A stretch of DNA of 64,000 bases, from contig CM034547.1 of the NCBI GenBank assembly GCA_020055645.1, positions 70,032,884-70,096,883 on the forward strand, given 5' to 3'. Source of the DNA: Tomocerus qinae. Taxonomy: Eukaryota; Arthropoda; Collembola; Entomobryomorpha; Tomoceridae. The position numbers were made by a program, and so were the translations under genes. Positions 1,832-57,200 of the stretch are shown here, in pieces. How positions within the stretch are numbered: position 1 is the stretch's first letter; every line of letters starts with the position of its first letter. A model generated the notes under the pieces. The model was not told the DNA's origin. It ran no database searches and saw only the letters and a list, made by a program, of their open reading frames with translations.

Positions 1832-2246
1832 TGTAGTAGTTGTAGAGACTCTATTGTAGAGAGTCATAGAGTAAGTATGCTGTAGCGGGTTATGGGGATA
1901 TTTAAATGTGGGTGAGCCAATCCGCGAGAGTAGAGAGGGACGCACATCGCACATTCTAATGTGGGGATAGTTAGACGGGAGAACGGAGCGGAAAGAGTGG
2001 CATTCTGTTTCTGGGCTTGAGTCGTGCGGGTTGGTTGATGGGCTAATAAAGTGGGAGTGGATCTGGACTTCGGATTGGTTTCCTTTGTGGCATCCAGCAT
2101 ACGGGCATTCAAGCATATGGACATTCAAGCATACGGGCATTGCAGGACTATCGGGCATTTCAGGACTAATCGGCATCCCTGGTTCGGTCGACTCTGACAA
2201 CGTACAGGCTTACCGTCTGAGGCGCATCCACCGGAACCCTAGCACA
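1832..2246 (+). repeat. 5' LTR of the 3.5-kb element
   Basis: 415 bp, seemingly identical to 4940-5354. AATAAA at 2045-2050. Internal short repeats of a CATACGGGCATTCAAG type near 2098-2150. Open frames on both strands here are by-products. Confidence 0.93.
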
Positions 2247-4939: not shown

Positions 4940-5354
4940 TGTAGTAGTTGTAGAGACTCTATTGTAGAGAGTCATAGAGTAAGTATGCTGTAGCGGGTTA
5001 TGGGGATATTTAAATGTGGGTGAGCCAATCCGCGAGAGTAGAGAGGGACGCACATCGCACATTCTAATGTGGGGATAGTTAGACGGGAGAACGGAGCGGA
5101 AAGAGTGGCATTCTGTTTCTGGGCTTGAGTCGTGCGGGTTGGTTGATGGGCTAATAAAGTGGGAGTGGATCTGGACTTCGGATTGGTTTCCTTTGTGGCA
5201 TCCAGCATACGGGCATTCAAGCATATGGACATTCAAGCATACGGGCATTGCAGGACTATCGGGCATTTCAGGACTAATCGGCATCCCTGGTTCGGTCGAC
5301 TCTGACAACGTACAGGCTTACCGTCTGAGGCGCATCCACCGGAACCCTAGCACA
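4940..5354 (+). repeat. 3' LTR of the 3.5-kb element
   Basis: Partner of 1832-2246. AATAAA at 5153-5158. Preceded by the purine tract AAAAAAGGGG (4926-4935). Confidence 0.93.
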
Positions 5355-27200: not shown

Positions 27201-30200
27201 ATGCCTCCATTAAAATCATTAATGGAATTTTGAAAAAGTTAACAAAGTCAATTTTCATGCAATTGAGAAACAAATTAGCCATTACAATTCGAAAATTGAG
27301 GGATGTAAAAAAAGTTTAGGAATCAGTGAATTCAGATTAAAGGAGATGCGGAATTTATTATCCTACAATATTGTATGATCAGTTCTGGGTTTAACAGGAA
27401 TAAGACAGGATGACAGGAATAATAAAGCTGGAGTAAGTGTAGCATGAACACAAACTCAGCTTGAAGGAGAAGATCAAGGTTAAGATCAAAGAAAGAAAAT
27501 GGAGAAAGTTATGTTATAAGTAAACAATCTTATTTGTATAAGTTTTTAGAGGTGGTGAAAAATCTACACCAAAATCATATGTGTACAGAGGATTTAGTTC
27601 TATTGGTCAAACACAGACACTAACAAATACAGCTTTCTTTGACACAGGCACAGCGCAGAAGACTTTAATAGCCAAACATGATGCTGAAACAAGTTGAATC
27701 TTTAAGGCTAAGGTTTTCTGCCTTGAGGTTAGGTTAGCAATTCGTAAAATAAGATGTGAGCAATTCATCGCTCGAGAGGACAAGGAAATAATATTTTGAT
27801 ACCACTTTTTGCATCATTTGTTCAGCAATATTCAATTTGGGACAATCGGGTTACATATTATAAGATTCGTTTCATTGCATTTATGGCAAAAATGGTAAAA
27901 TACAAACATTCATAATTGGCACGTGTACGTGCTACTTTTTTCTGCAGTTGACATTTGACCTAATTTGGGGCATTTACTTACAGATCAAACACTTACTAAT
28001 TTTAATTAATTTTAGATGCAGTATGCAGAAAATTATACACATCTCATTTATCAGTTAACTGCAGACTGGGGTCGGCCTATGAAATTACGATACTGTAGCA
28101 AATACAATGTTATGAGTTTATTACGCACTTATATAATACTAGTTGAATCCTAGCACACATAAAGTGTGCTAGAAAATGTTGAAATCAGTAAATTTCTAGC
28201 GACTGCGCATTGGCCCGAATTTCATAGACCGTTGATTGGACTCAGTATTGATAGTCTAGTCCTTGCTCATTAATTACAAAATATTACCCTTACTCATTAA
28301 TTACAAAATATTACGGACATAGATACAAACATTTATTCAGGAATAGTGAAAGAATCCCATGCGCATGCCCCACTTTATCTTTATGTAGAGTAAAGATAAT
28401 ATACCTCTGTTAATATGACAGTCTGTTTATTGTCTGGCCTGGCTACAATTAATGACCATCCAGGCGAGATTATCGCCGGCACAAAACTGTTGATCATATC
28501 TTCTGACATTCATTACAGAGATTCTGAGAAGGTTTTAATTAATATAATATAAACTGCAAAAATCCAACGTGCAAGGACTGATTGTAATAGCATTATAATA
28601 CACTCGTCAAGAGAATCATGTTATCAGTTACTAGTACTACTTATCCTCTAGTAGATTACTTAGAAGTATAATAAGTCCTTCAAAATGTTTCTTCAGGCCA
28701 ACTATAATTACATGTTTGACGCTGCGACTGAGTCCTTTGTACTTAGCATTATCACAAAAGAATGACTCAATTTGGCATTATTTACACCCACTCAGTCGAA
28801 TAGGCTTTTAGTCTGGGACTATCTACCGCTAGATTATAAACCAAACTTTTAAGTATTAGTAATAAGTACTCTCTGTATCTAGCTGACCGAAATAGGAAGG
28901 GAGTAAGTCGAGATTCTCACTCCGCCCCAGAAGAGAACTGAACTGAATATATACGCCAAGATATACAAAGAATGACTTTATATATTATTGAGTAAAAATC
29001 CAGTCCTTTTGTTACAAATCCTTTCCATTACATGATGTGAAAAGGCCTTAAAGAATTCCTTCTCACTTTCGACTCCTCCTACGCATATCTGCTCTGCTAC
29101 TGTTAAATCATGACTGTTAGAGAAAAGAGAGTAAACGGGAGATGAACTTACCTCTGCAAGGATCATTTTTAACGAGAAATTCGTCGAGAGCGACCCAACC
29201 ACCTCCAACACGAACCATCACAGTTGATCTGAGGATACGAACGAGTCGTAGCTTCTGGCTGTCACCAAACTGTTAAAAATCCATTATCAAATTAAATATC
29301 ACATTTCATAAGCAATTTTAATTAATTGGCTACTGTAATCTCTGATCCGTTTACATTTTACCTAAACTAACTTCACATGTGCCTGCCTAACTTAACATTT
29401 AATTCGAAAACATTTCTCTTTACATGAAAGCATGTGGCAGACTGACCAGATTTTCCTAGGTCAAAAGGAGACACCCACCTCTCCATAATGGAGGAGAATA
29501 TAATTGAAAAATAAATTTAAGAAAACTTGGCTGGGATTTATAAAAAAGGGGGGAGACATTTTTGGGACGAGGGGACTGTAGCCCAAAAAGGGGACAGATG
29601 GTGAGCCTGACAAGTGGAATAAGCCTATTATAATATGTACGTAGTCTTAAAGTATTATATGATTAAGACGTAGTCTGTAAATAGGTATCTAAAAATATAT
29701 TTATTGCTGACTCTCAACCGCACATATGCATGTAGTAAATAAAGTTTTGTTTTCCTTATAGCTATACAACAGAATCAGTGCACTATGTATAATGTATTTA
29801 CGCTATTGTTAAGTATAAAGTATAAACTGATTTTCCTGGACTAATTTAGGTTAAATTATTTTCCTTAAACAGCCCTAAATCAATGAACTCCTTTTTATGC
29901 TTTATTTAGACTTTTAAGTTTTAGATATTAGATGATAAATAGGTTAGTCACTAACCACTAGTTAAAACTTATTTTATGTAACACTTTTATCCATTTTACT
30001 GGAACACACATCCTGTAACTATAGTATATAAGCCTGTACTTTAATCGAAATAAATATTCTAAGTTTCACTCTTTAGTTTCACCCTTCTCTACGAAGTTTT
30101 ATTTTCATATACATACGTGTAAACTAGCACATTATTACTTGCTCATTTAATGGTCAGAATCTTCAGGGACATTTTCATTATTCGTATATTGCAAGATTCT

Positions 30201-33200
30201 GCATACCTATTTATTTGGCTCCCCGTGCTAACCTTTGAACTCCGATTTCGTGAACCTTAAGGCCCACCATTTCCTCAGGCCCTTACAGGACTCTCCGTGA
30301 CATATCCGTGCATGAACTTCTCTACGTTCTCCGGATACCGTGAGCGAGACAAGTGTTTTATACTTATTTTCAGCCGGCTTCCATATAAGTATTTCTCTCG
30401 TGTGTGTGAATGACTATTCTGCTAAAATAGTCATTTCGTCTCGCATTTTCCCAGCTGAGCCTAGTAGTGCTCACTCGATACACGACTTTTTTCAGACTGT
30501 GTTTCATAGTGGTGTGTGGCTCGCATAGCCAACTCTATTACATCGTGTCAGGCTTCTGTTCGGTTTTACAAACCTCACCGTTGCGGTCAGTGCAGTTGTT
30601 TATCTGCCACTCGCTCATTTTACTACTCGATTGTGTTTACTACTGCTATTATTGTGTCGCCTGACTCGATCCGTGCTCGATTTACATTCCGTCGATTTTC
30701 TTACGTTTTGTGCAGTCCATGTGTTCATTCATCGGACTTTTGTTTCCAACCAGCGACGGTCTCACCTCTACTCACCATCTCTCTCATCGTGGATTTATTC
30801 GCACTTGGCTTCCGAATTACTTTCCGATCCAGTGCCAACAAAAGGTCAGATTTTTTTTCTTCTATGCCCCCACTGTCCCTTTATTTTTTCGGTGGCCAGG
30901 GCTTGTCATTTTGACAATCATAGCACTTACATCCATATATGTTCTCGTGGCAGTCATAGCACTAGCTATGGTACCTAGCCAATGAGTGACCCTCAGGATG
31001 AACAATCCCCCACATCTAGTAGAGCATACACTAGACAGCAAGGGCAGGCCCAACTCCCTGCACACTTTGACCTTACAAAAAGCCCATATACAGAAGCAAG
31101 AAATAGAAATCAACAAATTGCAAGTAGTACAGCCAGTACTAAAACAAACCCCGACGAAGAACTTATCTCTGACGACGAATTTCTGGCAAAGCTCAGGCGC
31201 ATCCAACAATCCATCCCTGATCCAAAAAGGGAACTCAGCAACCAGCTCGCGAATATCTCAAGTCGACGAGGTACTACCTCCCACGCTAGATCCCAAAGCG
31301 TTCGTGGTACCACCCCCGAAGTATCAACTAGCCAGTCTCATTCGTTATCACCGCGCAGAGCGGTGCCCGCATTGCAAGGTCAAGATACACCGACCCTGCC
31401 AAAGGATACGCGCCAATCACTCTTCTCACGTGTTATCCGACCACTTTTTGGCAACAACCAAGAAGACCCAGAAGGTAGACAAACCGGTGACCGAACCCAA
31501 ACCGGTCTCCAAACCGAAACCCCGTAGGCAATCGTCAAGGACCTTACACTCCTCCACCAAGAATGGATGGCCAACCACCTCCAAACGGACAACAAAATCT
31601 ACCCCCAGGGGATCAGAACGGAGGAGGTGACGATGGAGACCAAAATGGAAATAACAGAAGACGTCACAATGATAGATCTAGGGAAAGTACCCCCCAGTCC
31701 CGAGACGACGATGAAGGCCAAAGAGCCCGTAGACGGATAATATTCGCTAACATGGAAGATCATCTAGATAATCACGCGGCCATAGCTGCCGCTTTAGACA
31801 AAATAGACCAGGCTATTGAAGATCATGAAGAAAACCGAAGACAATTGATCGAAATAGACATAGAAATTTATCTAGAGGAACTAAAACAATTGAAAACAGA
31901 TCTGGACAAACAACAGAAAAATTGTTTTAAAATATATGATAACGAACTTCACGAAGGAGAAGAAACGACTCCCCAAGAAAGAGCAGTGGCATATTACAAT
32001 CCATTAGAATCCAATTATCATAGAATATTACGAAAGTTAATGGCATTAGAAAAGGTTATCTGTCCTAGTAAAACCGTTGCCAACTCGAGTTCAGTGAACA
32101 AACTGAAAATTCCTAAATTTAGTCTGCCAAGGTTTTCAGGCAAACCAGAGCATTGGTCAGCATTCAAGGATAACTTTGAGACAGTAGTTATCAAAGAACC
32201 AGCATATTCCCCAGCCCAAAAACTTAGGCTACTTAACGATGCATTAAAGGACGGTAGTAGAAAACACATTAACAGCGATTTAAAAGTTAATGACCAAAAT
32301 TGGGAGACTGCATGGAAGAGGCTAACCTCACGCTATGACACACCAAGAGAAATGGCTCATGCAGCCCTGAAACCCATTCTAGATCTACCTACACTCATGA
32401 TTCAAACTGAAGATGGCATTAATAGACTCGTTGACATTGCACGAGCATCAGAGGCCCATCTTAAGGAGATTAATACTCAAGTTCCATTATATCATGTATT
32501 CTACATACATTTTATATTAGGAAGATTGGACAGTAAAACCGCAAAAGCATTCAATGATTCCATTAAAAATGACGATATTCCCACGTTTGAACAATGCTTA
32601 GAATTCTTGTCCAAAAAAGCGAAGGCCATAGGCCTCAACACCCAGATACGTAATACCTGTAAACAATCAGGGGATAAACCGAAGGAATTACGTTTTCATC
32701 ATAAGTCCAGAAAAGGACCACGGATTATGGTAGCGACTCAGGATACTGAAGGAGAAACTACCGATAACTACTCTGATAGCGAAACCTCAGGCACCAGCGC
32801 TACTAGCATATGTAGTGTTGCCAGCGGCACTAAGAAAAAGAGACAATCAAGACGGAAGAGTGAAAGAAAAAAATCCGTCAACTTCGCTGGAAAACCTCCG
32901 CCACGATTCCATAAGAAGGGTCAGAACAGAAGTCCCTCGCCAGGGCATAGTAAATTTGGACCTTCCAGATTTAAAAATGATAATCAAAGCCAGTTTCCTC
33001 CTAAGGACAGTCACGATAACAGCTGTTCCTTATGTCATAAGAAAGACCACAGGGTCACAGCCTGTCCCAAGTATCAAGCCATGTCTGTGAAGGAAAGAAT
33101 CAATTGGATCAAGACCAATCGCAAATGCTTTAACTGCGTTGGAAATCATCGGGTTAGCAATTGCACTAGCAAGTTTTCATGTATGACTTGTAGAAAACGA

Positions 33201-36200
33201 CATCATACGTCGACACATCTAGAACCCGAGTCACCCAGATCGAGTAGCCCACATAGAAAAGGGCAACAGATGCCAGTCCTTAATCACTCAAGAATCTTTC
33301 TCGATGAACAAGAAGAAGAAATTGGATTACTACCCACAGCAATTGTTAATCTCCAAAATAACGGCAAAACTCGCCGAGTTCGCTGTCTCCTCGATTGTGG
33401 AGCACAGAATTCCTTTATAACAGAAAAAATGGCAAAACAACTTCAACTAGAAGGATTTGGTGAAACCAAAAGATTTACAGTCGCCGGAGGGAAAACGATT
33501 CCCTCACTCGGAAAAACGATGTTCTGGATTCAATCTATAGTCAATCCAACCAATTCATACCGAGTTATCGCTTATATTTTGCCAGATATCACTTCACCCT
33601 TGCCCAATCAATCATTCGACAAGAAAGAATTACTACATTTAGAAGGCTTACCACTGGCTGACCCTACTTTCAACGAAACTCGACCAATAGAAGTCTTGCT
33701 TGGGTCAGCAATCTATGATAATGTCATGGAAACTAAGAAAATCACTGGATTAAGCGGCACACCTAGTGCTTACCGAACTACGCTTGGATACGTAGTTCTA
33801 GGAAAAACAAAGAAAACAGTGAAGGAATTTCTAAGATCAATTTCCAAATTAGCAAAACTGCCGGATTCAGACGAAGATGATTTCGATTGTCCAATACTAC
33901 CACATGAATTGGAAAACAAACCAACAGCCACAGGCTCAAGGATTACACATATAGCCCATGAAAAAGGATACTACGAAATGCCAAAACTATATCTAAATCA
34001 ATGCCTGAAATCATCAGCATGGCCATGGATTTATACCGCTGTGGTCATGGTCTTAGCAAACATTCAACAAACGTCGGCCACAGAAACTAACCCGAACAAG
34101 AAAACCAGATCATGGTGGACTACCACCATGGTATTCTATTGTGTAATTGTATTCGCCATCCTCGGATTTATTGGCAATACGATAACCTTAATAGCAATCA
34201 GCCGAACTCCACAACTGAAAAAGAACAAATTCAATTGGCTAATAATGAGTCTATGCTGCTCAGACTTGCTATTTAGCAGTGTGACACTTCCAATGACAGC
34301 AGTACGATACTACTACGATGCATGGATGTTAGGACCCTTCATGTGCCAAGTTTATGCATGGTTTCTATACGGAAACTTGTGTTGCTCACTGGCCAATATC
34401 CTCACAATATCATTCAATAGATATGTGTGTATAGTTCACCACTGGGACTATCCTAATTTATTCTCCAAATATCGTATGTGGTTCATGATCATCGTTACCT
34501 GGGTTTTAAGTTTTTTAATGGTCACGCCTCCAGCAATAGGAATTTGGGGGAAATTAGGCCCCAAGCCAAACAACCCAGCTTCATGCTCTATAATTCCAGA
34601 TAAATACGGTCAATCCCCTAAGAAGATGATTTGGATAGTAGGAATTTGCTTTCCTACTGCAATCATTATATATTGTTACGCACGAATTTTCTTCTACACA
34701 CGGAAAATAAGAAGACAAGTCGGCACTTTAACTCAAAGATCCATTACTGGATACGAAGAAAGAAACAAGGAGGAAAAACAACTATTTCGAATGATTTGTT
34801 TCGTATTCCTTGGATTTTTATTCAACTTTCAGCCTGTCATCATCCTAAATTTGTACGACCCGAAGAGAGAAAAAGTATCTAAATTAGTACATATCGGAAG
34901 TGCACTACTTGCATGGTCCTCCTCATGGACAAATGTACTGATCTATGCGATTTCAAACCCGCAGTACCGCAGTGCATATAAGAAATTACTATTACCAAGA
35001 CGCCGTCTCACTGCAACCCACTCCTCAACAACAATTATAACTACAACTATAATATTACTACTGATGGGATCAGGAATGGCAACGTTTCATCAAACTCAGC
35101 CAAACCTCTCGAAACTAGCCTCTCCATGTGAATATGAGTGGCCACCACATCATGAAATTCCAGAATGTACAAGCACTATCTCTTGGCTGCATACAAAAAT
35201 AAACGGAACTCTTTGCTTTCGAAATATCACATGCGATCCCGGAAAAATGATTGCACCTGAGGGCACTTCATGCTTGAATGTATCCAACGACACACAATGC
35301 AAAGGAATTTAAGGAGACTACATTAGATGACTTGGAATGCCAGTCACATTTTACACCTCCAGATCCGGCGATATTCTATCAAGACGATGTCAGATCACCA
35401 CTATGTGCCGTCGGTGACCATGTGCTAAAACATTGTCAACATTTTACCGAGCAGTATGAAAATGTTCCCGTGATCATTCAAGACGGGCAATTACATCCGC
35501 TTTTAAAATTAAATCTACAACAAGACGCCCGAAAGGAATCTTTTGAGTCATACACTTGCAAGGGTTCGTGTACGAAAGAAAAATGTACCTCAAACAATGC
35601 AAGGGTGACAGATTATTCTGCGAACAGTTCGGCTGCACTAACGAAATTCGAGCTAATTGCGAATGTCGTTACAATTCTTCAACGCTGCTTCACCGCATGA
35701 TATCCCCCTTGGGCGATTTTTACCCCCAATGTTGGGGTACAATGAGGCTGTTTACCCGAAAGGAAGATTTAAGTCATTCTCAAACAGTATATCCATGCGC
35801 AACGTGTAGCATTGAGTGTACTAAAACCGGTCTTAAAATTTCAACCCCCGGAATAGTAGCCAAATACATAAAAGCTCAGAAAAACCCTAATTTTGTGTCC
35901 GTAGTCCCAACCTCATTTGAGACAGCCTTACAGCTAACCAAAAGTATGTCAAGCTCTCCAGGTAAATTACAAATAGAAATTTGGGTACTTGATTACGATT
36001 CCCCGACAATTAGATCAATAACATGCCCTCGAATTCCCTTTTGTGAATTAATTGATTGTCATTTTTGCGCAGACCGATGGAGAAATTTCTCCTGCTACAC
36101 TTACATCCAATACGTGATTATAGCAATAGCCACACTAACTCTTTCCTCAATTATTTTTACGGTAATATATATCTCGAAAATTATTTGCACCCTGTTACGG

Positions 36201-39200
36201 TGTATTTCGTGGCCTTTACGAATTGTTATACAATTCATGAGGGCGAGGAAAACCCGCCCGAAACCAATTACTAGAGAATCAGATGAAGATATTGGGACCC
36301 CGCTTATAGAAGTAGCCCCACATATATCCACACCTATAGTCGAAGCACGAAACGAAACTCGTAGCGCACGTCGAAACTCAACTCGGGTACGCCGACGAGA
36401 CTATTTGCCCACAAGACTTTTGACTATATTTTCCCTATGGGTATCCATTTTCTTATGTTATGGGTGCTCAGATTTTGCATCCATTTCCGCCCAATCCAAA
36501 GAATGTCACTATGCCTCAGATACTACAACAACATGCACCGTACGCATTAATACTAGATTATCTCTTGCGGCACTTGATCAAAAAACATGCTTTCGTATTC
36601 AAGATGCCAAAAATCACGTTTTAGGATCGATCGTAATTGAAACTAAATCTGTTGCATTAACATGCATGAAGGAATTACTCTATTATATACCCAAGGCAGT
36701 ACCACATTGCACTAGTGCAATTAAATGTTACAATATATTTGGTTCTGCATTATGTCATGGAACCCATTGCGAAAATTTCGGCATTAATGACACAATCAAA
36801 GAATTTCGGTCTACTGAAACCAACTTGGGTTGGAATTATTGCCGTAATTTCCGTCACAATTGGTGTTTCCTCCCAATTCCATCAGATTGCAATTTTTATC
36901 GTGTGGCATTAGTAAATCCCACCAACCAAGCATATAAGGTTTGGAAATGCAATGAATGGAGGAATTCGGTAAAACTAAGCATTACACACCACTTAGGAAA
37001 TGAAACAACTACTAATTTAACCACTATTCATGCAGGAATTCCAGTAAAAATAGGAAAAATGGAATTCACCCTTATATCAATCACTGAACCATACACCCCA
37101 GTTCTAAATCAATGCCTATTGTCCAGAAATAATCAATACAGCTTGTCTGCTTGTTTAAATCGCGGACAAACTGAAATAGGCAGTATAGGCGAGATTGCAT
37201 GCCCACAAGAGCAAGACGCTAAAACTGTGAGCCACAACTGCTTTGCTAATCTTGGTCTGGTACGAACCATACCTACCCAGGACGGGGTCCGCTGTGTAGC
37301 AGACCTTGTAGACCCCGAAAAGGTTTTAGCTGAAAATCGACTACCATTAAAATTGGAGAATGGTATGTTAATAGCTGACTCAGGCAATATCAGTTTTCTC
37401 TCAGCCTCGACTTCAGCTCTAGAAATTCAAATGACTACCAACGATCTCCAAATAACTAAAGAAATCCAAGATATCTCTTGCTCTGTGGAGATAATATCCT
37501 TATCAGGTTGCTTTAATTGTTTGGAATCAGCTGAGCTAATTTTGGTTGGTAAGGTTGACATCGGATCTGAAACCGGTACGCTAGAATGTCCAGACGCTGG
37601 ATTTTTTAGCCCCGTACCATTGACGGATCAATTTACAAAACACCAAATTATAATGAAATTATCTCAACCAAATGTGCATATGAATTGTACGTTCAAATGC
37701 GCAAAACATGTTATTCCATTGACCATCACAGGTCATTTACATTATTCAGAAGATGTGGATGTCAGAGATGAAATGACAGACACATCGTTCACATTATTCC
37801 AAGATACCAATAAAACAGAGTCAACAACCTCTGGTTTTAGTTGGGATAATTTAGGATTAAACTGGGCCAATATTAAGTCAGTTCTCCAACTGCCATTTAC
37901 TATTGGTTCCTTTTTATCCTCGATATTTTCCTCATGGATTTTAAAAATAATAGTATTCATCCTTATTATTGCCTGTTTAGCTGGGATATTGTACCTATGC
38001 TCTCAACGGCTCATAAAAAAGATGATATAACGCAATTAAGTATTAATTTAGTTCTTTAAAAATTAACAATAGAGTAAGATTTCCATTTTACACAATTGTC
38101 TCAAATAAATGTAAAATCTACGTATCATAGAAATAAGCTATGTTATCTAAATAGTACATAAGAATCTCGACTTTTGTCTTAGAATTAAGTCCGTAATAAA
38201 TTAATAAGTAGTTCCATCCGGTCTTTGCAGTATGGATACCTCTCAACACTTTTTCAACGGAACTATGGAAGAACTCGAATTTATTTTAAACACTCCCAAA
38301 ACTCCTGTAACCATGGTACCTTCACCTGATATCGCTCCTTTACCATGGTCCCCATTTTCGTTACCCCCTTTAACAGTAAATAACGAAATTGAAAACACAA
38401 CTTCTACTCTTGAAGCAGAAAAACCATTGGATTTAAGCCACCATACCCTTACAGTTCCAGAATCAAGTAAAGTGCTAGTTGTGAACACATCCACAAGTGA
38501 AAACAGTAAACCCCCAACAACCACGATAGTTCCTACCGGTCCTACAAAAGAAATCATAAATCTTCTTACTACTCCTCCATTGATCGACATAAGCTCGATA
38601 ATTGACGAATTTATAACCTCGAGTCCACCCAACAACTAAATTCACAGTCCTTCAACGAAGCGATACTCCAAGATGCAGAACTCAACCAAATAGATGACTA
38701 CAACATCGTGATTAATTCTAACGTGCAAGAAAATTTGGAATTACGGCGCAAAATCATTAATCTGGAAAATACGATATCTTCTAATTCTCAATTCGCAAGC
38801 ATGCGAGCTACCCGTATACGATTTCTAGAACGCTATGTATTAGAAATACATAATGAGAAAACCAGAATCCAACAAATACTAAATACATTACTGCACCCTG
38901 GACCTTCCGCATCGCATCCATTGACAAACACTAGCTGCCCATTATCTGGCAGAGAACGTATGATTCACGAAGACATGAAATATTGGTTTACTGTAGCTCA
39001 AACACTGAAATTAGATGTGGAAAAGGCGATAGAAGAAAAGGAAAAAGCTGAATGGGACTGGAGTAGAGAAAACCAACATCACATAGAAGCATTGGCGACT
39101 ATACAGTCCTTGCAAAAACAGATAAAGAGCATGCGGTTACGTATTTTTCCAGCTCATAGGAAAATAAACTCTAAAACGAGTAAAACTGTTCCTACTAAGC

Positions 39201-42200
39201 GGACAGGGATCCCTACAAAGGGAACCACAAGAAAACAAACAACATCCTCAACCGCAAACTGATAGTTCCTATATATATAATTACTTCCAGTTAAACACAT
39301 CCACCGCTAAATGAACTGCTTATATTGCACTAAGGAAATATTCTGTTTAAACAAAAATGTCACAAGGCTGTATTCATACTAATAATTCTTAATTTACCTT
39401 TTATTTTGTAACCAGTGAAGAAATTCCTCAATAGTTCATTCACATCACGTTGGTTATCCAGACTTGTTCTTCTTACCGATTTGCTCTCTCTTCAATCTTA
39501 AAATGGATCTAATTCTTTCAAACTACGATAGTGACAGTGATAGCAATAGTTTCCTGTCTGTAGACGATGGAAACTGTATACCTACAAACGCTGACAGTTC
39601 CGACAAAAAGTACGCTGAATTGCTTCAAAAATATAACTATGTGAAACAGTGGAATAAACAGTGTCGAGCCAGTTATATTGAAGTAAGTGGAAAATACAAT
39701 GTTGCATTAAAAATACAAAGTGAAGTGGAACCAATAGTGACACAATTATGTGATTTGGTTGAATCTACCAACCAGCGGTTGGAAAGCACAAATGAAAAAT
39801 TAGTGTTAACAACCGCCGAACTCATGAAAGTTACTTGTGCCCATAAAAACAATAAGGCGACAATAAAACTGTGGCAAGGCCGATACGGTAACGAGCAACA
39901 AAGACTTCAGGAGAAAATAACTGATTATCTCATCCTAGAACAGAACCATGACGTATGGATTAGAGAACATAAGGATCTCCAGGAAAAACATCAAAAACTC
40001 GAGGGTGTAAACGAGATTCTCCAAGCAGATGTCGTATACAAGGATGAAGATATGCCACCTTACAACGTGCCATTACCGATCTTAACAACCGTTATGATGA
40101 AGTCAATGATAACCATCATGATCTGAAATTACAATTAGAAGAAGCAGAGGCTCAGAACGCAGTACTCCAAGCTGACATTGACAGGATAAATAAAGAAAAA
40201 CTCCAAAGTCAAATTGAAACTCAATCATCACGAAACAACCGAAAAAGGTTGTGTGCTGAGTTTAAAAAAGTTAAAAATGACTATTCAAACCTACAGAAAC
40301 TATCAAAAGGATATGAACAGGCCGGTGCTCTCTTCAGAGCTGAGAATAAACAACTCCAACAACAGCTACGGGACAATAAACCTGAGGGCCAATTTCTTCT
40401 TCGGGAACAATTAGACGCCAAAGATGAAGAAATTGCTCATCTCTCCCAATCTCTTAGGAAAAAGCAGACTGAGATTTGGGAACATCAAGATGACTTCGCT
40501 CGTCAAGTTTTAGAAAAAAAGAAGATCCTACAAGCGAAGGCTATTGTGCAAGCCAAATTAGATGATACAAAAATGGTCCTGGAACATACACAGGAAGGAT
40601 TGGAAATACAAAATCAAGCTATCTCTAATCTCCAAACCGAGGTAACACTCACGCGGCAAAGATGTGTGCGACAATACATCCGCCGTGCTAAAGTACTGAC
40701 CACCATCAGAAGTGACAATCTTCAAACCCGTGCACTTCACGCCGCAAGAATCACATTGCAGAACGCACAACGAGCCCGAAGATATATTGGCATTCATAAG
40801 GAATATCGTCACGGTATGTCAGTTTTCATACAAAATTTAAATCAACGTCGTCTTCTACGCTCTCGACGAGACTTTGTTAATTAACATTTATTATCATTGT
40901 GGTTTTCCTTTCTTCCATTTCTTCAGTATTTTATCACATATCTACTTATTCTTAGACTCAAACTAATATCGTTCTTTAAGTATCATTGCTTATCATATCT
41001 TGTATTTACCAATTTTTTGTCTTCCCTTACGGTAACCCAAAGGCCGGGAGAATATTATAATATGTACGTAGTCTTAAAGTATTATATGATTAAGACGTAG
41101 TCTGTAAATAGGTATCTAAAAATATATTTATTGCTGACTCTCAACCGCACATATGCATGTAGTAAATAAAGTTTTGTTTTCCTTATAGCTATACAACAGA
41201 ATCAGTGCACTATGTATAATGTATTTACGCTATTGTTAAGTATAAAGTATAAACTGATTTTCCTGGACTAATTTAGGTTAAATTATTTTCCTTAAACAGC
41301 CCTAAATCAATGAACTCCTTTTTATGCTTTATTTAGACTTTTAAGTTTTAGATATTAGATGATAAATAGGTTAGTCACTAACCACTAGTTAAAACTTATT
41401 TTATGTAACACTTTTATCCATTTTACTGGAACACACATCCTGTAACTATAGTATATAAGCCTGTACTTTAATCGAAATAAATATTCTAAGTTTCACTCTT
41501 AGTTTCACCCTTCTCTACGAAGTTTTATTTTCATATACATACGTGTAAACTAGCACATTATTACTTGCTCATTTAATGGTCAGAATCTTCGGGACATTTT
41601 CATTATTCGTATATTGCAAGATTCTGCATACCTATTTAAAGCCTAAGCATTGTTTGAAAACGCCTATCTGCTCCTGTCGGGTCTTATTAATCCTCAAAGT
41701 GAATTGACCGAGCGACAGGAAAGTCAAGTAATTTTCTAAATATTAAAGTAGGGAACAATATTTCAGTTCAAATAAAACTTGTAGTGACTGCAGAGAGTAT
41801 TGACAATTATTTAGGCATATCAACTATGCTTTGATTAAAATGATGTTAGAAGTCAGAGAGAGAAATAAACGAGTGGACACTTGACTTTGCTCAAAGGAGA
41901 CCCTTGTATAATATGCAGCTAGCTAGATTATCTGTTTGGGATTAAAGTGGCAGCTTTAGAGTTGCGTCATACGAACATCAAAGATGACAATAATGCTAAG
42001 AGGTATTATCCTTTTCGAAATTCCTCCTATCAGCATCAGTAAAAGTGTGTTTGTCTGTTGGTTTGGAAATCAATACAATTCCTGCAGCCATATACATAGT
42101 CTTGCATCGAATACTATATTATAACGAATCCAATTTCACTATCAAAGGATAATAAAATTGGAAAGGAGTCTTTTTTGACAAATACGTCGTGATCGCGAGC

Positions 42201-48200: not shown

Positions 48201-51200
48201 CTGACGTGAACAGAGAAGTTTGTAAGTGGAAAAGCTGATAGAGTCCCTCGAGTGTGAGGGAGCAGCAATTGAGACTTACCCGGGTGTGGTGCTTCGGAGA
48301 CGACTCCCCGGCTTCCCTTTCTGAGCAGGTTGACGACTGATCAACTTCGGTTTGCACACCGAGTCGATCTCTGGCTGTCTCTTTGCCATGCCTTCCATGA
48401 ACTCTTTGTGCTCCTGGGTCAACAAACCAATTGGATGAGTCAGATGGGTAATCAACAAGATACAAGGACTCGGTGATATGTAATCTAATTATAATTTATC
48501 ACGATTTGTGTAACTGAATTATACTTTGATGAGAATTTGAATTTGTCCCAAGTCGTCAGGCAGTGGCTCGGCTTCCAATTGAGTCAGCGTATCTTCGCAA
48601 CTCTGCAGCCAGGCCATCAGCTCCTCCAATAACTCCTCCATATTCCTTAGCGAAGCTAGATGAGCTTGTAATTTTTGAGCTCGCTGAAATCAAATTGTAA
48701 AAAGTTATTAGAGAACGGAAATTAAAAGTTGTCAAAACTGATTAGATTAGCTAAGCAAGATAGGTAAGTAGATTAGACCTGGTTAGCCCATGAGGAGATT
48801 TCATCCCACCGAGATTGGATTATTGAGATCCAGTGCTTAATCACACTGACGGCGTCTGGATGGGCTTTAGCTAGAATGCTTTTTGCCAAATCAATCGTCT
48901 CATCTTTCTCACGCTCTTTCGCCAGCAGCTCTCGCATGAATCTGTCAGAAAAATATTTTGTTTACAGAAGTAACCTCATTAAAAACTAGTAAACACCAAC
49001 TCACTTTTCCTGCTCTTCCAAAAGTTTTCGTGTCGAGTCTTCGTCCTCTGGCAATGAACCAGCGAAACGAAGTTTCATTTCGGCGTCAGAAAGCCATTCT
49101 AGAAGCATGTGGACAGCTTTGTGAAGTTTTTCCGCCTAAGACACAAAATACAAACATTTTGACAAGCTATTTCATACTATTTCACTCGACAGGATTCCTG
49201 ACCTAAAATTACCTCTTTAAGGGCTTGCTCCAATCTCCTGGACTTGTTGTCACATTTACCCTTAATTTTATCAAACGAGCTCTTAATCTCTTTCACTTGG
49301 CCGGATAATTTAGCCTTTTCTTCGGCTGACGCTGTTTCCATCATTTCCTCAGCTGTTTTGATCACATCGTGCATCTGAGAGCGGCGGTTATTCAATTCTT
49401 CTTCCAATTTCTATTAATATAAAATTGGGTTATTTTCCATCATTCATTACCTATTCACATGAACACAACCTATCTACACTTAATCATTGATCAATTTGAA
49501 TTATTCGTTCCCAGGCGAGTACAGTACCTTGTGTTGTTCAATAAGGGCCATGACGGTGTCCAAATCTCCATGAACAGGACCATCATCAACCAAGAGACTG
49601 TCAATTTGTCGCAACCAATCCAAGAGTTCCTGAAGGGCGTCTTTAAACTGGCCGGACCTGAGAAGAGCTTCTTCCAAGTTTCTTTGGCGCTCGACGCTCT
49701 TATTACAGACAGCGTTCCACTTGTTCTTCAAATCCGTAAGCATTTGGCGGAGAACGGGTTCGTCGGATTTGGGGGCTTTATCCTTGAGCGCCTTTCCGTT
49801 TTTCATGGTTGTGTCATAAATCGGTTGTTTGGCAGCCAGTGCTCTCTGGAACTCTTTGTGCTTGGCCAACATCTGCTTGATCTTTATAGGATTGTTTCCA
49901 GCGGTCGCTGTCATTTCGTCCAAGTTCTTTTCGGCTTCGTCCAGCCATTTACAGAGGGACAGCCAGGCGTCGTGGAATTCCTTTGCTTCTTTCATTCCGT
50001 GATCTAGGGCCCGAGTTCGTTCAGTGGACTTGGATACAACTCTTTCCCAACGATGCTGAACGGAGATGAGGAGGTTCTTGATAAGAATGACATCTTGCTT
50101 CTGGCTGAAATATTTCAGATGGTTGCCTTTCTTCTCCAGAATGAGCATCACCTCTCGATGGGCTCCTACTTCCTTCTGGAAGTCTTTGTGAGTCTCCACT
50201 TGCTCGATCACTTTCTCCAAAACCCTAGATACAGGTTCTAGTCCAGTGAGATACCGCTCTGCCTCTGTCAGCCAGTCAATAAAATCTTGTACAGCTTTGT
50301 GGAATTCCATAGCTTCTTTCAGTGCAATTTCCAACTTAATCTTTTTGTCATTAGCTCGATTCATGACACTCTCCCATCGCTGACGAAGTGTTCTTAAGTT
50401 ATGGGAAAGATTTGTCGCAGCACCTTCTGTGGACTTCTTCAAATATTCCTGACCTTGCTGGAGGACTGCTTCAACCTTAGGTCGATTCGTCTCCAGTTCA
50501 TTGTAGATTTCCTGCATGATAGAAAACAATTTTAAGTTATAAGTCCACATAAAAGTTGCAAAAGCATTTGTTACATTTTCATGTGTCTGTTTACCATAAA
50601 ACGGTTGAGTTGCTCTTGAGCAGTCTCAGGGAGACCGCCGACGGGTTTAGAAGTATTGAGAGCTCCGTCAACGTCATTGAGCCACATAAGCAGGTCTTGA
50701 ATCTCAGCGTTGAATGCCTGAGCTTCTCGAAGAGCATCTTCCAGTTCTTTCTGTCGATCGTTAGCTTTCGATTGCAAATCCCCCCATTTCCGATTCAAAT
50801 CTGTCAACTTCTTTTGGGTGTTTGAAGCATCTACTGAACCTTTGTCAGACTCTATGATTTGACGACCAGCATCATTGAGAGTGTCAACGCTGCTTTGATG
50901 GGCTTGAATGTCGTTCACCATCACCTATACGCAAATACTTTAGATGTCAGAGCAGCAAACTCATTATATTACATAATATATTCAGTTAAAGTCAGTGCAA
51001 GAATTTACTTTCAGTTTGGCTAACTCGACTTCGATCACTTGAGGATCTCCAAATACAGGCTTAAGGGAGTCCAAGGATTTATTTGTCTTTTCAATCCAGG
51101 CCATAAGCTCATTTAGAGCGTGTTGGAATTGACCGAGTCTCAGAAGAGCATTTTCCAATTCCCTCTGTCGCTCAACAATTCCTTTCAGAAGGTCATCCCA

Positions 51201-54200
51201 CCTGCGATTGACTTGGGCGAGAGGACCTTTGATTTTAGCTGCTTGGTCTGGAGATGTCCGTTCCGTTAACTCTTGGGCTTGTCTACAGTTTAAATTATAT
51301 GACAATTGTCAGTGACGATACAGACCAACAACATGAAGCGAATCGCAAAGCTTCGCTTTAAAAAATTATTAAACAACACAGAGCGTTGGTTAGAAACAAA
51401 AACATTTTTAAGTCCCTTAACTCTGTCCTCTACTATCATGACAGACGAACTTCAAAAACCAAAATACAAAAAAATTTAAAAAGTGGAGCGAACGAGAACG
51501 GTCTATCAAAAATCATTTAGACTATCCAACGAGGCAAGTGCATTCACAATTTTATTGAACAAAAATAGACGAAAAGCATAAAAAATTCAAAAATATACAC
51601 AAAATTGGGCAAAACGGTGTCACTAAACATTATTAAGTCTACTAAGAAGCAGTTAGTGAACAGCTGTAGGCTCTAAGTGACAATGTACAGAAAACAAACA
51701 ATTATTGGCATCACAGCAAAATAGCCTTTATTGCTGTTGGTAATCAGTTTCTTTACTCTACTTGCCTCCGTAGTGTCCTAGACATGAAATTGTATTGTCC
51801 ATCAAATTGTCGATCGTATCGTATGATTATACGTTTCCAATTCCAACCAATCCCAACAGTCACCGAAAGTTAGCAGAAATAAATTATTTTCCATATTAGC
51901 TTCATAAGTACGTATTAAAAATGTAATAATATTATTATATAAAATAATTTTGGGGTGACTAAACTTGTAAAATGATTTCTTATTTGGTCAATTATTATTA
52001 TCAGTATAGGTAGGTTTAAGGAGAATATACATGATCGAAAGGAAATATAGGTATAATAATAGCAAGAATTAGTTGTTTCATCTCTGCTCTATGGAGAGAA
52101 CAGACAGGAAACAGAACTGCCAAAGCCACGTTATTGATAATTTATGCGAAAAGAGCATAAGGAAAATGACAAAGAAGAAATCGAGTACGTACGACACGTA
52201 CGGAGAAAGACCTAGTACGGACCTGTTCAAAGCTTCGACTTTCACCATCATAGGATCAACATCCCCTTTGAAATCCTTCAACTCTTTGATTTGCTTCTTG
52301 ACGGCATCGATGTCTGCTCCAATTACACCGAAATTTGACAGACGATCTTCCGCTCTGTCTAAGAACTTTAACAAAGCCTGCAAGGGAAATAAATATACAA
52401 TGTTATTAAATGTAGTGAAGAAGAGACTGGGAGAATGCAATATGAAATGAGATCCGAGTACCTGAAGAGTGTCATGGAATTCCATTGCCTTCTCCATCGC
52501 ATCGATGAGATTTTCTTCTCGTTTGGCAAAAAGGGCTGTGATGTTATCCCAGGCTGAGTCTAGATCTTCGATATTCTTTTTAATTTCTGGCTTATCTTGA
52601 TCGCCAACAATTTTCATCAGATTCTGTCCCGCCTGTCTGCAGTGATTGACTTCTGGTTTGGCCTTTTCGATATCCTTCTTGATGTCTTGAAGAGCATCTT
52701 GTTGTTTCTGAATAGCTTTTGGTTCTACCGCAGGTGGCTCTTGACTCTTAAGAGTTTCTTGCAAAGCATCTAATTTCTCCATGATAGCCTGGAGCTGTTC
52801 CCAGAACTTCTCAGCCAGGATCAAAGCCTCGTCCAAATTCTTTCCTCGCTGTTTGGTGGCTTTTTGAATCTGATCCCACAGACTGTTGAGCCTATCCAAT
52901 TTTTGTTTGATGTCCCTGACGGCGGGGTCATTTTTGTTCGCCGCTTTGTCAATCACATCTGCTGCTGTTTTCTTGACAGCATTGAATGCATCTTCACGTT
53001 TCTTTACATCGTCAATTATCGCTTGATTGTCGTCTATTTGTTCTCGGATTTTTTCCGGATGGGCAGAAATTGGTTCTGCATTGTTCACTTGATCTGCCGT
53101 GTTCTCCAACGCATTCAGCATACCGTCCAGCTTATCTTTAAATTGACTCGTTTCCTACAATCAAATCCATTCAGTAAATACTCTCGATACTTTTCAAAGG
53201 AATTCTAAATAAATGCATAAATACAGATCACAGGGAAGTGGTTACCTGAAGAGCTTTCTCCAGTTCCAGTTGTTTGTCACGGAGAGCTAGACGGAGAGCA
53301 TTGTAGCGCTCGTTGTCCACGTGCATGATCTCCTGTACTTTTCCAGAGTCGTCTTCATTGCACAATCGCACCAAAGCAGCTCCCGTCTTATTTAGTTTGT
53401 CCACCAGTGGCTTGTGTTCATTGACGGATTGGACAAACGCTTGAGTTTTGTCTTGGAGTTTGATGATTTGGTCTGGACGAATAGCCGGTGTGTCTAAGAC
53501 TCCCATTTCGTCTTCCATCGCATCCATCCATTGATTCAAATCGATGTGAGTGTCGAAGAAATGTTCTGCCAAAGGTAAAGCTTGTTCCAAAGCATTCAGA
53601 CGGTCACTACTCAGTTTGGAAACGGATTCCATTGTTTCCTTGAGGTCCTCTGCCTTCTCTCGTAGAACCGCCGTGTCTTCTCCTTGTGTTGCCTCACGGA
53701 GAACCTTCTTGGCAGTTGCCAGCACATCCCGTACGCGACCCTTCTGACTGGAAATCTCGTCGTTGAGAGCTTTGTGTTCTTGAAGCTGAACTCGAACGAC
53801 GTCCGGCTCGCAACTTGGTTTTTCAGCATCCTTTATTTGACCCTCAATTTCTCTGAACCAATCCAAAAGTTCGTCGATGTCTGTAAGCACCTCCATTGAT
53901 CTCTGAAATAAGATTTTATAATTAAATCATTTGGACCAAATCAGTTAAGATGAAAATACTATCTTTAGGAGCTTACAGCTTTTGACATTTGAATTCGCTC
54001 AGCACGCCGCTGTACTTGTTCACAAATTGCATCGAAACGACGATTGTCACGGGTGACCAGACCTTCAATAGTGGAAGCTCCTTCTCCCGGAGAAATCTGA
54101 CACAACTGTGGACCTACAAGATTGATGACTTCCAAAACTTTGCGCTGATCACTGATTTCATTCTCAAGTCGCTGAATGACCTTTTCTTGAGAATTAAGGC

Positions 54201-57200
54201 TCGTGTTTTCAAGGGACTGCAGAACTCCTTCAGTCTCACTCATCCATTCCGACAAATTGTTGTGACATTCGTGAAATTGCGTTACCAAAGGCAAAGCTTC
54301 TTGCGCATTTTTCAATAAATCAGCAGCCTTGTTTGTGACATCGTTAAATCTTCTTTGAAGAGAGTCCAGTTTGTCCTTAAGCTGAATAGCCTCGTCGTTA
54401 GAAATATTTTTCATCAAATCCAAACCAGCCTCGACAGTGTCATCAACTTGTTTTTCTCGGTCTTTTATCTCCTCTGTCAAGCTCTGCGGAAGATAAACAA
54501 ATAGGTTAGAAGTATTTTTACATCCTTATTTTGCATCTTTTTAATGAACAACTTACAGCAATACGATCCATTTGCTCCAAAAGTTTATCTTTGTGTACAG
54601 ATAGAACTTTGTATTTGTTTAGTCTCTTTTCAATGTCGTCCATCCAGGCAACAAGTTCTTCGTAAGATAAGACCAAATGTCTAAGCCCAGCCTTGGATTG
54701 TTTTAACAGACGGCCTAGGGCTTCTGACTCCTCTACTAATTGACCATAGCGATCTGTCACATCTTGTAATTTGTCAGCTACTGTCACAGCTTCGTCGTCT
54801 CCGACGAGTTCCATTAGATTTTGAGCTACGTCTGCCAGGTCATTGAATTCCGGTTGTTTTTTCAAAATGTTATCATGCAGGGCCTACACCAATTCACAAT
54901 TTATATTAATCAAAGTTTTGTGTGAAGGAATATAAGGATCCATTATCTAAATAACTTACATCATGTTCCTTAATTCTTTTAGCAATTTTATCCTCGTCAG
55001 TTGGAATAAGTGACATATCTTTAAGTTTCTTGCTCATTTTCTCCAACCAATCGGAGAGGGGTCCAATTTTGTCTTGGAAGTTTTTGGCAACCTTCATGGC
55101 TTCCTCCAAAACTCCTTGTCTCTCCTTGGCCCCATCGCATAAATTGCCATAGCGTTCGCCCATGTCTTGCATTTGGCCTTCGATATTCGCTCTTTCCGAA
55201 GGGTCAGCATTGGCAGCAATTTCTTTACCCATTTTGAACAAGGAAGTGACAGATGGTTGTCGGTCCAACAACATTTTGTTCAAAAACTTTTGTTCCTGTA
55301 GCTGAGCTTTGACAACTTTGAAGTCGGCTGATGGAGGTTTCTGGTTGGCTACGAGTTCTTCCATTTCACTCAACCACTTGTCGAGCCCTTCAAAGGCTTC
55401 CTTGAATTTTCCTGATTGTAGCAGTGCGACATCCAACTTCCTCTCCATTTCATTTATCTAATAACAAAAATATTCATTAATAAATACAATAGACTACGGC
55501 ATAAACAAAATAATAAAAACGACCATTCCTAAAAACAATATAATACTCTCACCCTTTCTTTAAGTGCATTCCACTTGTCGTTGAGCTTCTCGAGGTCTTT
55601 TTCCAAACCAGTGGTATTAACCCCGTTAGCAGCGGACTGAATAAGTCCCTGTCCGGATTTGTTACATTCGTCGACTTGTTTGCCCACTGCTTCCACATAC
55701 CTCGCTCTGAATTCCTTGAATTGCTCTTGTTGAGCTCTGATCGTTTCCACATCTCCACCAACAGTTTTTCCAAAGCTCCTTTCCTGTTGTACCAAATCAT
55801 TGATTTCTTCATCGGTATTATGATATGCGTCGTAAAAGGATTCAAGGCGGGCCAAGGTTTTGTCCAAATCCTCTTCTCTTTGTTTCGTTTTGTCTTCCAA
55901 TCTTCCAATTTGTCTTCGGAGAGTTTCGATTTGATCTTTTTGTCCCTTTGCGTCAGCAGCAACTCCTTGACGAATCAAATCTTCTAAAGCAGCCGAAGCT
56001 CCCTCCACATCCTCTCGCTTCTCATGCAGTTTAACAGCAAAATTTTCCACTTCTCGGATTTGACTTTTTACTGTGGGGATATCTCGGCCGATTGGTTTAA
56101 ATCCATTGAACTCATTTTCCAATAGGGCGACTTGAGATCCGATGGCCTTCATAGCTTCTGTGAATTCAGCCATTGCCTTCTGGGCCGACTCCAAATCCGC
56201 AAATCGATCATCCAACTTGGACTTCAAATTGTCAAATCTGTCCATGAGGTCGTCGACTGCGTCTTGGATGTGCTGTCCATCGCATCGTTGTTCGCTGGCC
56301 GAATTGCAAAGATCATCTCCCTGGTTCCGCACGTTGTTCAGCGGTCTCTCCAACTTTTCTGCTTCTTCCTGAATTGCTTTTATTCTCTGCAAAAGTTTCG
56401 GGTCCCGAGCGGCGTCGCCCAGACCATCGTGAGACGCCAATCTATCTTCACAGCGATTCAGAGCGTTTTTCACATCGCGACAGTTGTCGTTGAATTCGTT
56501 GAGTTTGGCTGCAGCGTCTTCCAGCTCCTGTGCCTTGGCCAACACCGCCGCATTAAGAGCTTCCCAGCGCTCCTTCATTTCCTGCAGTTCGTGCTTCACA
56601 CCTTCTTTGTCTCTGTCACAAGCGCTGATGAAAGTGTCTCCGAGTCCACGGCTGGATTCGTACTCTCCTTGATGACGCCACAAATCGTTCTTAAACGCTT
56701 GTACTTCCTTAAGCAGTTTGTCAATGTCGGGTTTCTTAAAGGAGGTGAGGACGAATTTGTCGAACTTGTCTTCTGCCTGAGTGAGCCACCTGAGGAAGGA
56801 GTCCCGTCCTTTGTCATACTTCTTGCAGTGTTCGTTGCATGTCTGCAGACGAGTGTGTCGGTCAACAGTTTCCTTCCGCAGACGATCCCAACCCTTTTGA
56901 ATCTTCTCCATGTTTTGCTGGATGATCCTTTGCTCAGGCTTTCGCGATGTCTTTGCCAAAACTTCCTTTCCTTTGTTCAGAGTCATGATGATTTCGTGCT
57001 CTTTGCTCATCACTTCCTTGTAGATCGGCTCAAACTCCTCGATCTGTTCCTTCAAAATGTCTCGATCCGCAGAAACGAGAAGCTTCTCAGACACACGCGA
57101 AAGAAGATCTTGGAGCCACTCCTGAGCAGCCTCACAAGCTTCGTTGAATTCTACACCATCTTTTTTGGAATTCTCCAGTTCTGCTTTACAATTATCCAGT

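What the first reader, a model, noticed from the sequence alone, without database searches (positions are those of the whole stretch)
31563..35312. A BEL/Pao Gag-protease frame fused in frame to a captured seven-transmembrane receptor
Seen: after the zinc knuckles and the aspartic protease the same 1249-codon frame continues into a complete rhodopsin-class receptor, where the family has reverse transcriptase. Known: BEL/Pao elements encode Gag-protease-RT-RNase H-integrase as one chain, and acute retroviruses can swap pol for a host gene. Inferred: this is a host-gene capture by a retrovirus-like element, here of a signalling receptor. I know of no described BEL/Pao element of this form.
Basis: partly seen in the sequence, partly recalled or inferred. 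Interest (0 to 1): 0.95.

Follow-up and report, generated by a model that had tools for sequence, protein, structure and literature searches.

The report
Retrovirus-like element with its own receptor
A family of enveloped, retrovirus-like mobile elements in an animal genome carries a complete seven-transmembrane receptor gene between its integrase and its envelope, apparently kept by natural selection; the copy in this window has in addition lost its replication enzymes.

Summary
In detail: one 1249-codon frame (31563-35312) runs Gag, protease, complete class A receptor. It belongs to a young 12.0-kb LTR element (29626-41638) with near-identical LTRs and a 5-bp target duplication. The interpretation needs changing: the receptor did not replace reverse transcriptase. 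Sister copies in the same genome, about 15.4 kb, read Gag-protease-RT-integrase-receptor-Env, in related copies as one frame of up to 3472 codons. The window copy is a later pol-deletion derivative (junction near 33811); three other copies share the junction, each with its own target duplication, so it probably moves in trans. A second family has the receptor (44% identical) at the same place, and receptor divergence tracks integrase and Env. Close copies differ mainly at synonymous sites (17 versus 2 in one pair). The receptor is intronless; its best solved relative is GPR84, and the host has an intron-bearing Tre1-like gene. Receptor-less relatives also occur. My literature searches found no receptor-bearing reverse-transcribing virus. 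Best reading: an old mRNA capture that became a standing viral GPCR of an enveloped BEL/Pao-type lineage. That it signals and aids spread is inferred.

The parts
29621..29625 (.). 5' target-site duplication AAGCC
29626..30213 (+). 5' LTR (588 bp; the complete LTRs compared in L009, L011, L013, L014 are 586)
30216..30226 (+). Likely primer-binding site TGGCTCCCCGT; fits the 3' end of tRNA-Asp from memory only
   Evidence: sequence; tRNA assignment recalled
30982..31527 (+). 181-aa leader ORF, no Pfam match; a 180-aa counterpart lies in L024
31563..35312 (+). Main frame, 1249 codons: Gag, protease, receptor, start of Env
32133..32570 (+). Gag domain DUF1759
   Evidence: residues 191-336
33354..33515 (+). 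Aspartic protease (Asp_protease_2)
   Evidence: residues 598-651
33803..33825 (+). Junction left by the pol deletion; same sequence in L009, L013, L014
34020..34079 (+). Signal-peptide-like stretch before the receptor (by eye)
   Evidence: sequence
34173..34946 (+). Seven-transmembrane receptor, 7tm_1 match
   Evidence: residues 871-1128; anchors
35031..35087 (+). Hydrophobic, signal-like stretch between receptor and Env GN
   Evidence: (hydropathy), residues 1157-1175
35088..38030 (+). Phlebovirus-like Env (G1, G2), split over three frames in this copy: main frame, 35278-35700, 35556-38030
38232..39262 (+). Accessory ORF 1, in two frames here (38232-38639, 38708-39262); 346 aa open in L025
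39464..40884 (+). Accessory ORF 2, in two frames here (39464-40126, 40249-40884); 480-488 aa open in L025, L029, L031, L033
41040..41052 (+). Purine-rich stretch before the 3' LTR (likely polypurine tract, by eye)
41053..41638 (+). 3' LTR (586 bp)
41639..41643 (.). 3' target-site duplication AAGCC

Best explanation
The window holds a young, pol-deleted copy of an enveloped BEL/Pao-type lineage that carries its own class A GPCR. In complete copies one long frame encodes Gag, protease, RT, integrase, the receptor and a phlebovirus-like GN-GC Env. The receptor was taken long ago from a spliced mRNA of a Tre1/moody/GPR84-type gene and has been kept by selection while the lineage split into families. 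Inferred mechanism: signal-like stretches on both sides let host signal peptidase free the receptor at the ER membrane next to GN-GC; it then sits in the plasma membrane or the particle and signals, helping the virus spread between cells, possibly by changing migration or adhesion of infected cells, which is what Tre1 does in flies. The window copy, without RT and integrase, moves in trans with enzymes of a full copy. Shown: arrangement, copy number, deletion, constraint. Inferred: capture from mRNA, processing, signalling, benefit.
For: Integrase or DUF5641, then 7tm_1, then Phlebovirus_G1 in one open frame in L017, L011, L023 and L022; RVT_1 upstream in L024 (28.6 bits, just under the 29.6 cut-off) and L026 (31.7, above it). 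Frames of 3472 and 3424 aa hold both receptor and G2 hits. Second family with the receptor at the same place; identities between families 56% IN, 44% receptor, 37% GN. Receptor omega 0.03-0.05 in window-L011 and window-L019, neutral P 6e-10 and 1e-16. Class A anchors kept and P7.50 to V in 5 of 5 viral receptors aligned. Four pol-deleted copies share one junction and have four different 5-bp duplications. GPR84 is the best solved match; host gene L040 with introns is 40% and 33% identical over two exons.
Against: L022-L023 receptor omega is 1.03, so that pair shows no constraint. Receptor-less relatives exist, so the receptor is not essential to every enveloped relative. Receptor trees do not show the viral receptors as one clade; held together they are not rejected either (p-AU 0.525). 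No RNA, protein or signalling data. The AlphaFold model was poor (pLDDT 47.6). P7.50 is lost, so coupling may be altered.
Confidence: 0.8

Rival explanations
1. Acute-retrovirus-like swap: the receptor replaced RT and integrase in one capture event.
For: In the window copy the receptor does follow protease directly.
Against: Sister copies have pol and receptor together, with the receptor behind integrase; the second family shows the same order.
Confidence: 0.02
2. Assembly chimera of an element and a cellular receptor gene.
For: The window stretch is indel-rich: against L013, 6 mismatches but 23 gapped bases over the element.
Against: 9 of 16 matches to 33900-34200 are 100% over the full length at separate places; the pol-deletion junction occurs in four copies with different duplications.
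Confidence: 0.01
3. The receptor is kept only as a membrane-topology device that leads Env into the ER, not as a signalling receptor.
For: It sits directly before GN with signal-like stretches on both sides; the NPxxY proline is lost; L044 and L049 have only one hydrophobic segment there.
Against: A topology device would not need N1.50, D2.50, C3.25, R3.50, W4.50, C45.50, P5.50, P6.50, N7.49 and Y7.53, nor omega near 0.05 over about 300 codons; L045 and L047 do with one short leader.
Confidence: 0.15
4. The two families captured related receptors independently at the same site.
For: Receptor-less L044/L049 group with the second receptor family on integrase (82/92, not strong); one receptor tree puts the second viral receptor with the host genes (80/99).
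Against: Same insertion place and flanking signal-like stretches, shared P7.50V, and divergence in step with integrase and GN; viral monophyly is not rejected.
Confidence: 0.12

Closest known systems
Atlas virus and other Gag-Pol-Env belpaoviruses of nematodes (PMC9094657; outline, abstract and passages seen)
   Same: BEL/Pao-type Gag and Pol, phlebovirus-like GN-GC Env, one continuous Gag-Pol-Env frame, near-identical LTRs
   Different: No receptor is mentioned in what I saw; Atlas is 9204 nt with 271-nt LTRs and a 2828-residue polyprotein, here about 15.4 kb, 586-nt LTRs, up to 3472 codons, receptor and two further ORFs
Viral GPCRs of beta- and gamma-herpesviruses and poxviruses (PMC9584139; abstract and passages seen)
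   Same: Captured class A receptor kept as a viral gene
   Different: [quoted passage not shown] here a reverse-transcribing LTR element, with a Tre1/GPR84-type receptor
Host mRNA capture by crocodilian ERVs, KIT-ligand and nectin3 (PMC4299795; outline and abstract seen)
   Same: Retrovirus-like element with a captured host mRNA; one case without loss of an ERV domain
   Different: Vertebrate ERVs, a ligand and an adhesion molecule; here a seven-transmembrane receptor in two families of a BEL/Pao-type lineage under purifying selection
Tre1/moody/GPR84 receptors (PMC6122984 and PMC8540695; passages seen)
   Same: NRY at the end of TM3; GPR84 is the best solved match; host L040 matches RLTXMMLXI and RXHATTAFV but for one residue
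   Different: The viral receptor is intronless, does not show those two motifs, and has NVxxY instead of NPxxY

Membership tests
Belpaoviridae (BEL/Pao) | BEL-type Gag and Pol domains in the order Gag-PR-RT-IN | tested here: met
   Full copies: DUF1759, Asp_protease_2, RVT_1 (L024 just under, L026 above the cut-off), Peptidase_A17, Integrase_H2C2, DUF5641. The window copy itself lacks RT and integrase in the pieces scanned
Belpaoviridae (BEL/Pao) | Place within BEL/Pao on an RT tree with reference members | not tested
   Only an integrase tree with BEL-type database proteins was made
Belpaoviridae (BEL/Pao) | LTRs of 0.2-1.2 kb | tested here: met
   586-588 bp; range from PMC8742986, whole text seen
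Belpaoviridae (BEL/Pao) | Genome of 4.2-10 kb with one to three genes (descriptive range of the ICTV profile) | tested here: not met
   Full copies about 15.4 kb by LTR spacing, window 12.0 kb, with receptor and accessory ORFs. A described range, so I call the lineage BEL/Pao-type rather than claim formal membership
Belpaoviridae (BEL/Pao) | 18-nt primer-binding site for tRNA-Arg or tRNA-Gly | tested here: inconclusive
   TGGCTCCCCGT at 30216; resembles tRNA-Asp from memory; no host tRNA was compared
Class A (rhodopsin) GPCR | Whole-length 7tm_1 match | tested here: met
   Profile 1-260 of 260, E 2.1e-38
Class A (rhodopsin) GPCR | Conserved anchor residues | tested here: met
   10 of the 11 positions checked kept in 5 of 5 viral receptors; P7.50 is V in all five
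Tre1/moody/GPR84 family | Closer to this family than to other class A receptors | tested here: inconclusive
   GPR84 leads 622 PDB matches, best 60 shown; host L040 33-40% over two exons, L051 31-35%, other receptor L052 25%. No reference Tre1 or moody sequences were at hand
Viral GPCR (works like) | Receptor expressed and signalling from a viral genome | not testable with these tools
   No RNA or protein data

The most novel reading that the evidence does not exclude
The lineage is a complex, enveloped reverse-transcribing virus that has used its own Tre1-type receptor through at least two families, as a tool that steers infected cells or particles across epithelia towards the germ line and so makes infection heritable; it would be the first GPCR found as a standing gene of a reverse-transcribing virus.
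Probability: 0.25. Interest if true: 0.95.

Novelty: new variant of a known kind. Interest (0 to 1): 0.84.

Why it matters
Viral GPCRs are described for large DNA viruses, and ERV captures of host mRNAs are known. Here a retrovirus-like lineage carries a complete receptor and has kept it under strong constraint while families diverged. That makes it testable whether endogenous retroviruses use receptor signalling to spread between tissues and reach the germ line. The pol-deleted copies also show how such an element can shed its enzymes, keep gag, receptor and env, and still multiply.

Tried and rejected
Receptor in place of RT: rejected on the sister copies. Chimera: rejected. Structure prediction of the window receptor with six distant database proteins gave pLDDT 47.6 and was not used. 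Protein database: the receptor alone gave 6 hits at 22-25% identity; the fusion frame, residues 180-1170, gave 14 hits carrying BEL-type domains, none covering more than 38% of the query; receptor plus start of Env of L017 gave none among 3571 candidates. Viral contigs: four scans, no relative. Rfam on the window: none. A first omega for integrase of L017-L011 (0.846) came from misaligned codons and is replaced by the aligned value 0.165. Omega values of receptors with broken frames (L010 0.47, L016 0.40, L021 0.20) are inflated by out-of-frame pieces and were left out; L018, in frame, gave 0.158, L017 0.373 on only 7 differences; L012 and L015 gave the same counts as L011, L020 the same as L019. 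Host: TTAGG arrays occur (531 matches, 0 in the control) but the places listed are interstitial, so I do not name the phylum; a spectrin/plectin-repeat gene shows that it is an animal.

Literature: searches; no listing that I saw describes a GPCR in a reverse-transcribing virus or LTR element. A survey of BEL/Pao elements (PMC3118150) does not contain the words receptor, transmembrane or 7tm (word search of the main text). The library lacks bioRxiv and most subscription journals.
Full report
What is there. The frame 31563-35312 is 1249 codons and carries a BEL Gag domain, an aspartic protease and a full-length 7tm_1 receptor. It lies in an LTR element at 29626-41638: LTRs of 588 and 586 bp that differ by two single-base indels and no substitution, a 5-bp duplication AAGCC on both sides, behind the receptor a phlebovirus-like Env (G1, G2) and then ORFs with no Pfam family above its cut-off. 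No RT or integrase was found in the frames and pieces scanned (8, 10).

It is a family. The stretch 33900-34200 has 16 matches in the window's own genome (334 Mb, 115 contigs), 9 of them, the window included, at 100% over the full length. I fetched 4.1-4.4 kb around the other 15. Three (L009, L013, L014) match the window from Gag through the receptor. Nine (L010, L011, L012, L015 to L020) match it from 33811 onwards; L015 also shows the 210 bases before, further upstream. Three (L021, L022, L023) match only from later points.

What lies upstream in the others. Pfam on L017, L011 and L023 gives Peptidase_A17, Integrase_H2C2, DUF5641, then 7tm_1, then Phlebovirus_G1, each in one open frame of 1367 or 1467 codons; L022, whose open frame starts later, gives DUF5641, 7tm_1 and G1. 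The pieces upstream of L017 and L023 give Gag, protease and RVT_1, the last just under its cut-off in one (L024) and above it in the other (L026). Whole-genome searches report frames of 3472 aa (C1:51.48M, the L023 copy) and 3424 aa (C7:1.28M) that hold both the receptor hit and the G2 hit. The remaining copies that break at 33811 were not scanned by Pfam; for L010 and L016 the LTR spacing agrees with a full pol. So the native order is Gag-PR-RT-IN-receptor-Env, and the receptor does not stand in the place of RT.

The window copy is a derivative. LTR pairs are 11,426 to 11,443 bp apart in four copies (window, L013, L014, L009) and 14,771 to 14,813 bp apart in four others (L010, L016, L017, L011); the pair around L015 is 10,684 bp apart and leaves only about 0.5 kb before the end of protease. 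The four short copies have the same junction sequence and four different perfect 5-bp duplications (AAGCC, ATAGT, GTGTA, AACAC); the LTRs within a copy differ at 0, 0 and 1 of 586 positions in L009, L013 and L014. One deletion was therefore followed by several insertions, which needs enzymes from another copy (inference). L011 has no duplication, as expected of a tandem; L017 shows 4 matching bases. In the second family L042 shows, by eye, an independent pol deletion that joins protease to the integrase end and keeps the receptor in frame.

Age and selection. The second family (L041, L043) has the receptor at the same place. Between families (L017 against L041) identity is 56% for integrase, 44% for the receptor and 37% for GN; between L017 and L023 it is 85, 77 and 68%. 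The receptor diverges in step with its neighbours. Receptor codons (NG86, 348 codons): window-L011 17 synonymous to 2 nonsynonymous changes, omega 0.03; window-L019 32.8 to 6.2, omega 0.05. L017-L011: receptor 0.054, integrase 0.165, GN 0.095. Binomial P under neutrality is 6e-10 and 1e-16 for the first two pairs. L022-L023 is an exception at omega 1.03. Against L023 dS is saturated; 290 of 960 bases differ without a stop, where a simple neutral simulation gives a mean of 11.5 stops, minimum 3 in 1000 runs.

Origin. The best solved relative is GPR84 (1e-24), which PMC6122984 calls the mammalian orthologue of fly Tre1 (passage). The host has a gene with introns (L040) whose exons contain RLTKMMLLI and RIHATTWFV, against the published Tre1 motifs RLTXMMLXI and RXHATTAFV, the second with one mismatch; an intron appears to split its NRY. 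It is 40% and 33% identical to the window receptor over two exons and 25% over a third stretch. L051, moody-like by eye, is 31-35%; L052, another receptor, 25%. The viral receptor has no introns, as expected of an mRNA capture. The donor is not identified. In 5 of 5 viral receptors aligned (L022 and L023 are near relatives) 10 of the 11 anchor positions checked are kept; P7.50 is V in all five and P in L040. Trees do not settle whether the viral receptors are one clade.

Relatives without receptor. The Env (G2) search gave 55 hits. At least nine loci with a full or nearly full G2 hit have no receptor hit just upstream; I fetched six of them. Four (L044, L045, L047, L049) show integrase running to Env without a receptor; L046 shows leader and GN behind an unrelated RT-bearing stretch; L048 has lost the region. 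L045 and L047 have one short leader; L044 and L049 have a leader, one hydrophobic segment and a second signal-like stretch, which could be a receptor remnant (inference). On integrase L044/L049 group with the second receptor family (82/92, not strong), L045/L047 separately; GN leaves the three groups unresolved. One gain and at least one loss is the simplest history, not proven.

How it may work. Shown: the frame, the flanking hydrophobic stretches, the constraint. Inferred: signal peptidase frees the receptor from the Gag-Pol side and from GN; it reaches the surface or the particle and signals. Tre1 acts in transepithelial migration of germ cells and in the exit of blood cells from vessels in flies (PMC6122984 passages); an enveloped element that must pass from soma to germ line could profit. 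This last step is a hypothesis.

Limits. Only one genome could be searched, its name is withheld, and no RNA was available. Counts from the genome search are lower bounds by its own statement.

Noticed in passing
window 49501-63969, - strand: Exons of a host gene with spectrin repeats and plectin repeats (spectraplakin-like by recall); the element lies several kilobases beyond its last recognised exon.
   Followed up: partly
window 1832-2246 and 4940-5354: A 415-bp direct repeat, 100% identical, about 3.1 kb apart, holding short tandem repeats.
   Followed up: no
L042 (C1:59929500-59932400), reverse strand: An independent pol deletion in the second receptor family: Gag-protease joined in frame to the integrase end and the receptor.
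   Followed up: partly
window 38232-39262 and 39464-40884; L025 2323-3360 and 3530-4969; L027 2352-3383 and 3467-4633: Two accessory ORFs behind env, coiled-coil-like by eye, without Pfam match above cut-off, present in several copies and in a diverged relative; function unknown.
   Followed up: partly
L011 and L012, contig C3 at 9.17-9.19 Mb: Two related copies in tandem, about 15.7 kb apart, with extra LTR pieces between them.
   Followed up: no
L022 and L023: A pair of diverged copies whose receptors differ as if neutral (9 synonymous, 33 nonsynonymous), unlike the other pairs.
   Followed up: no
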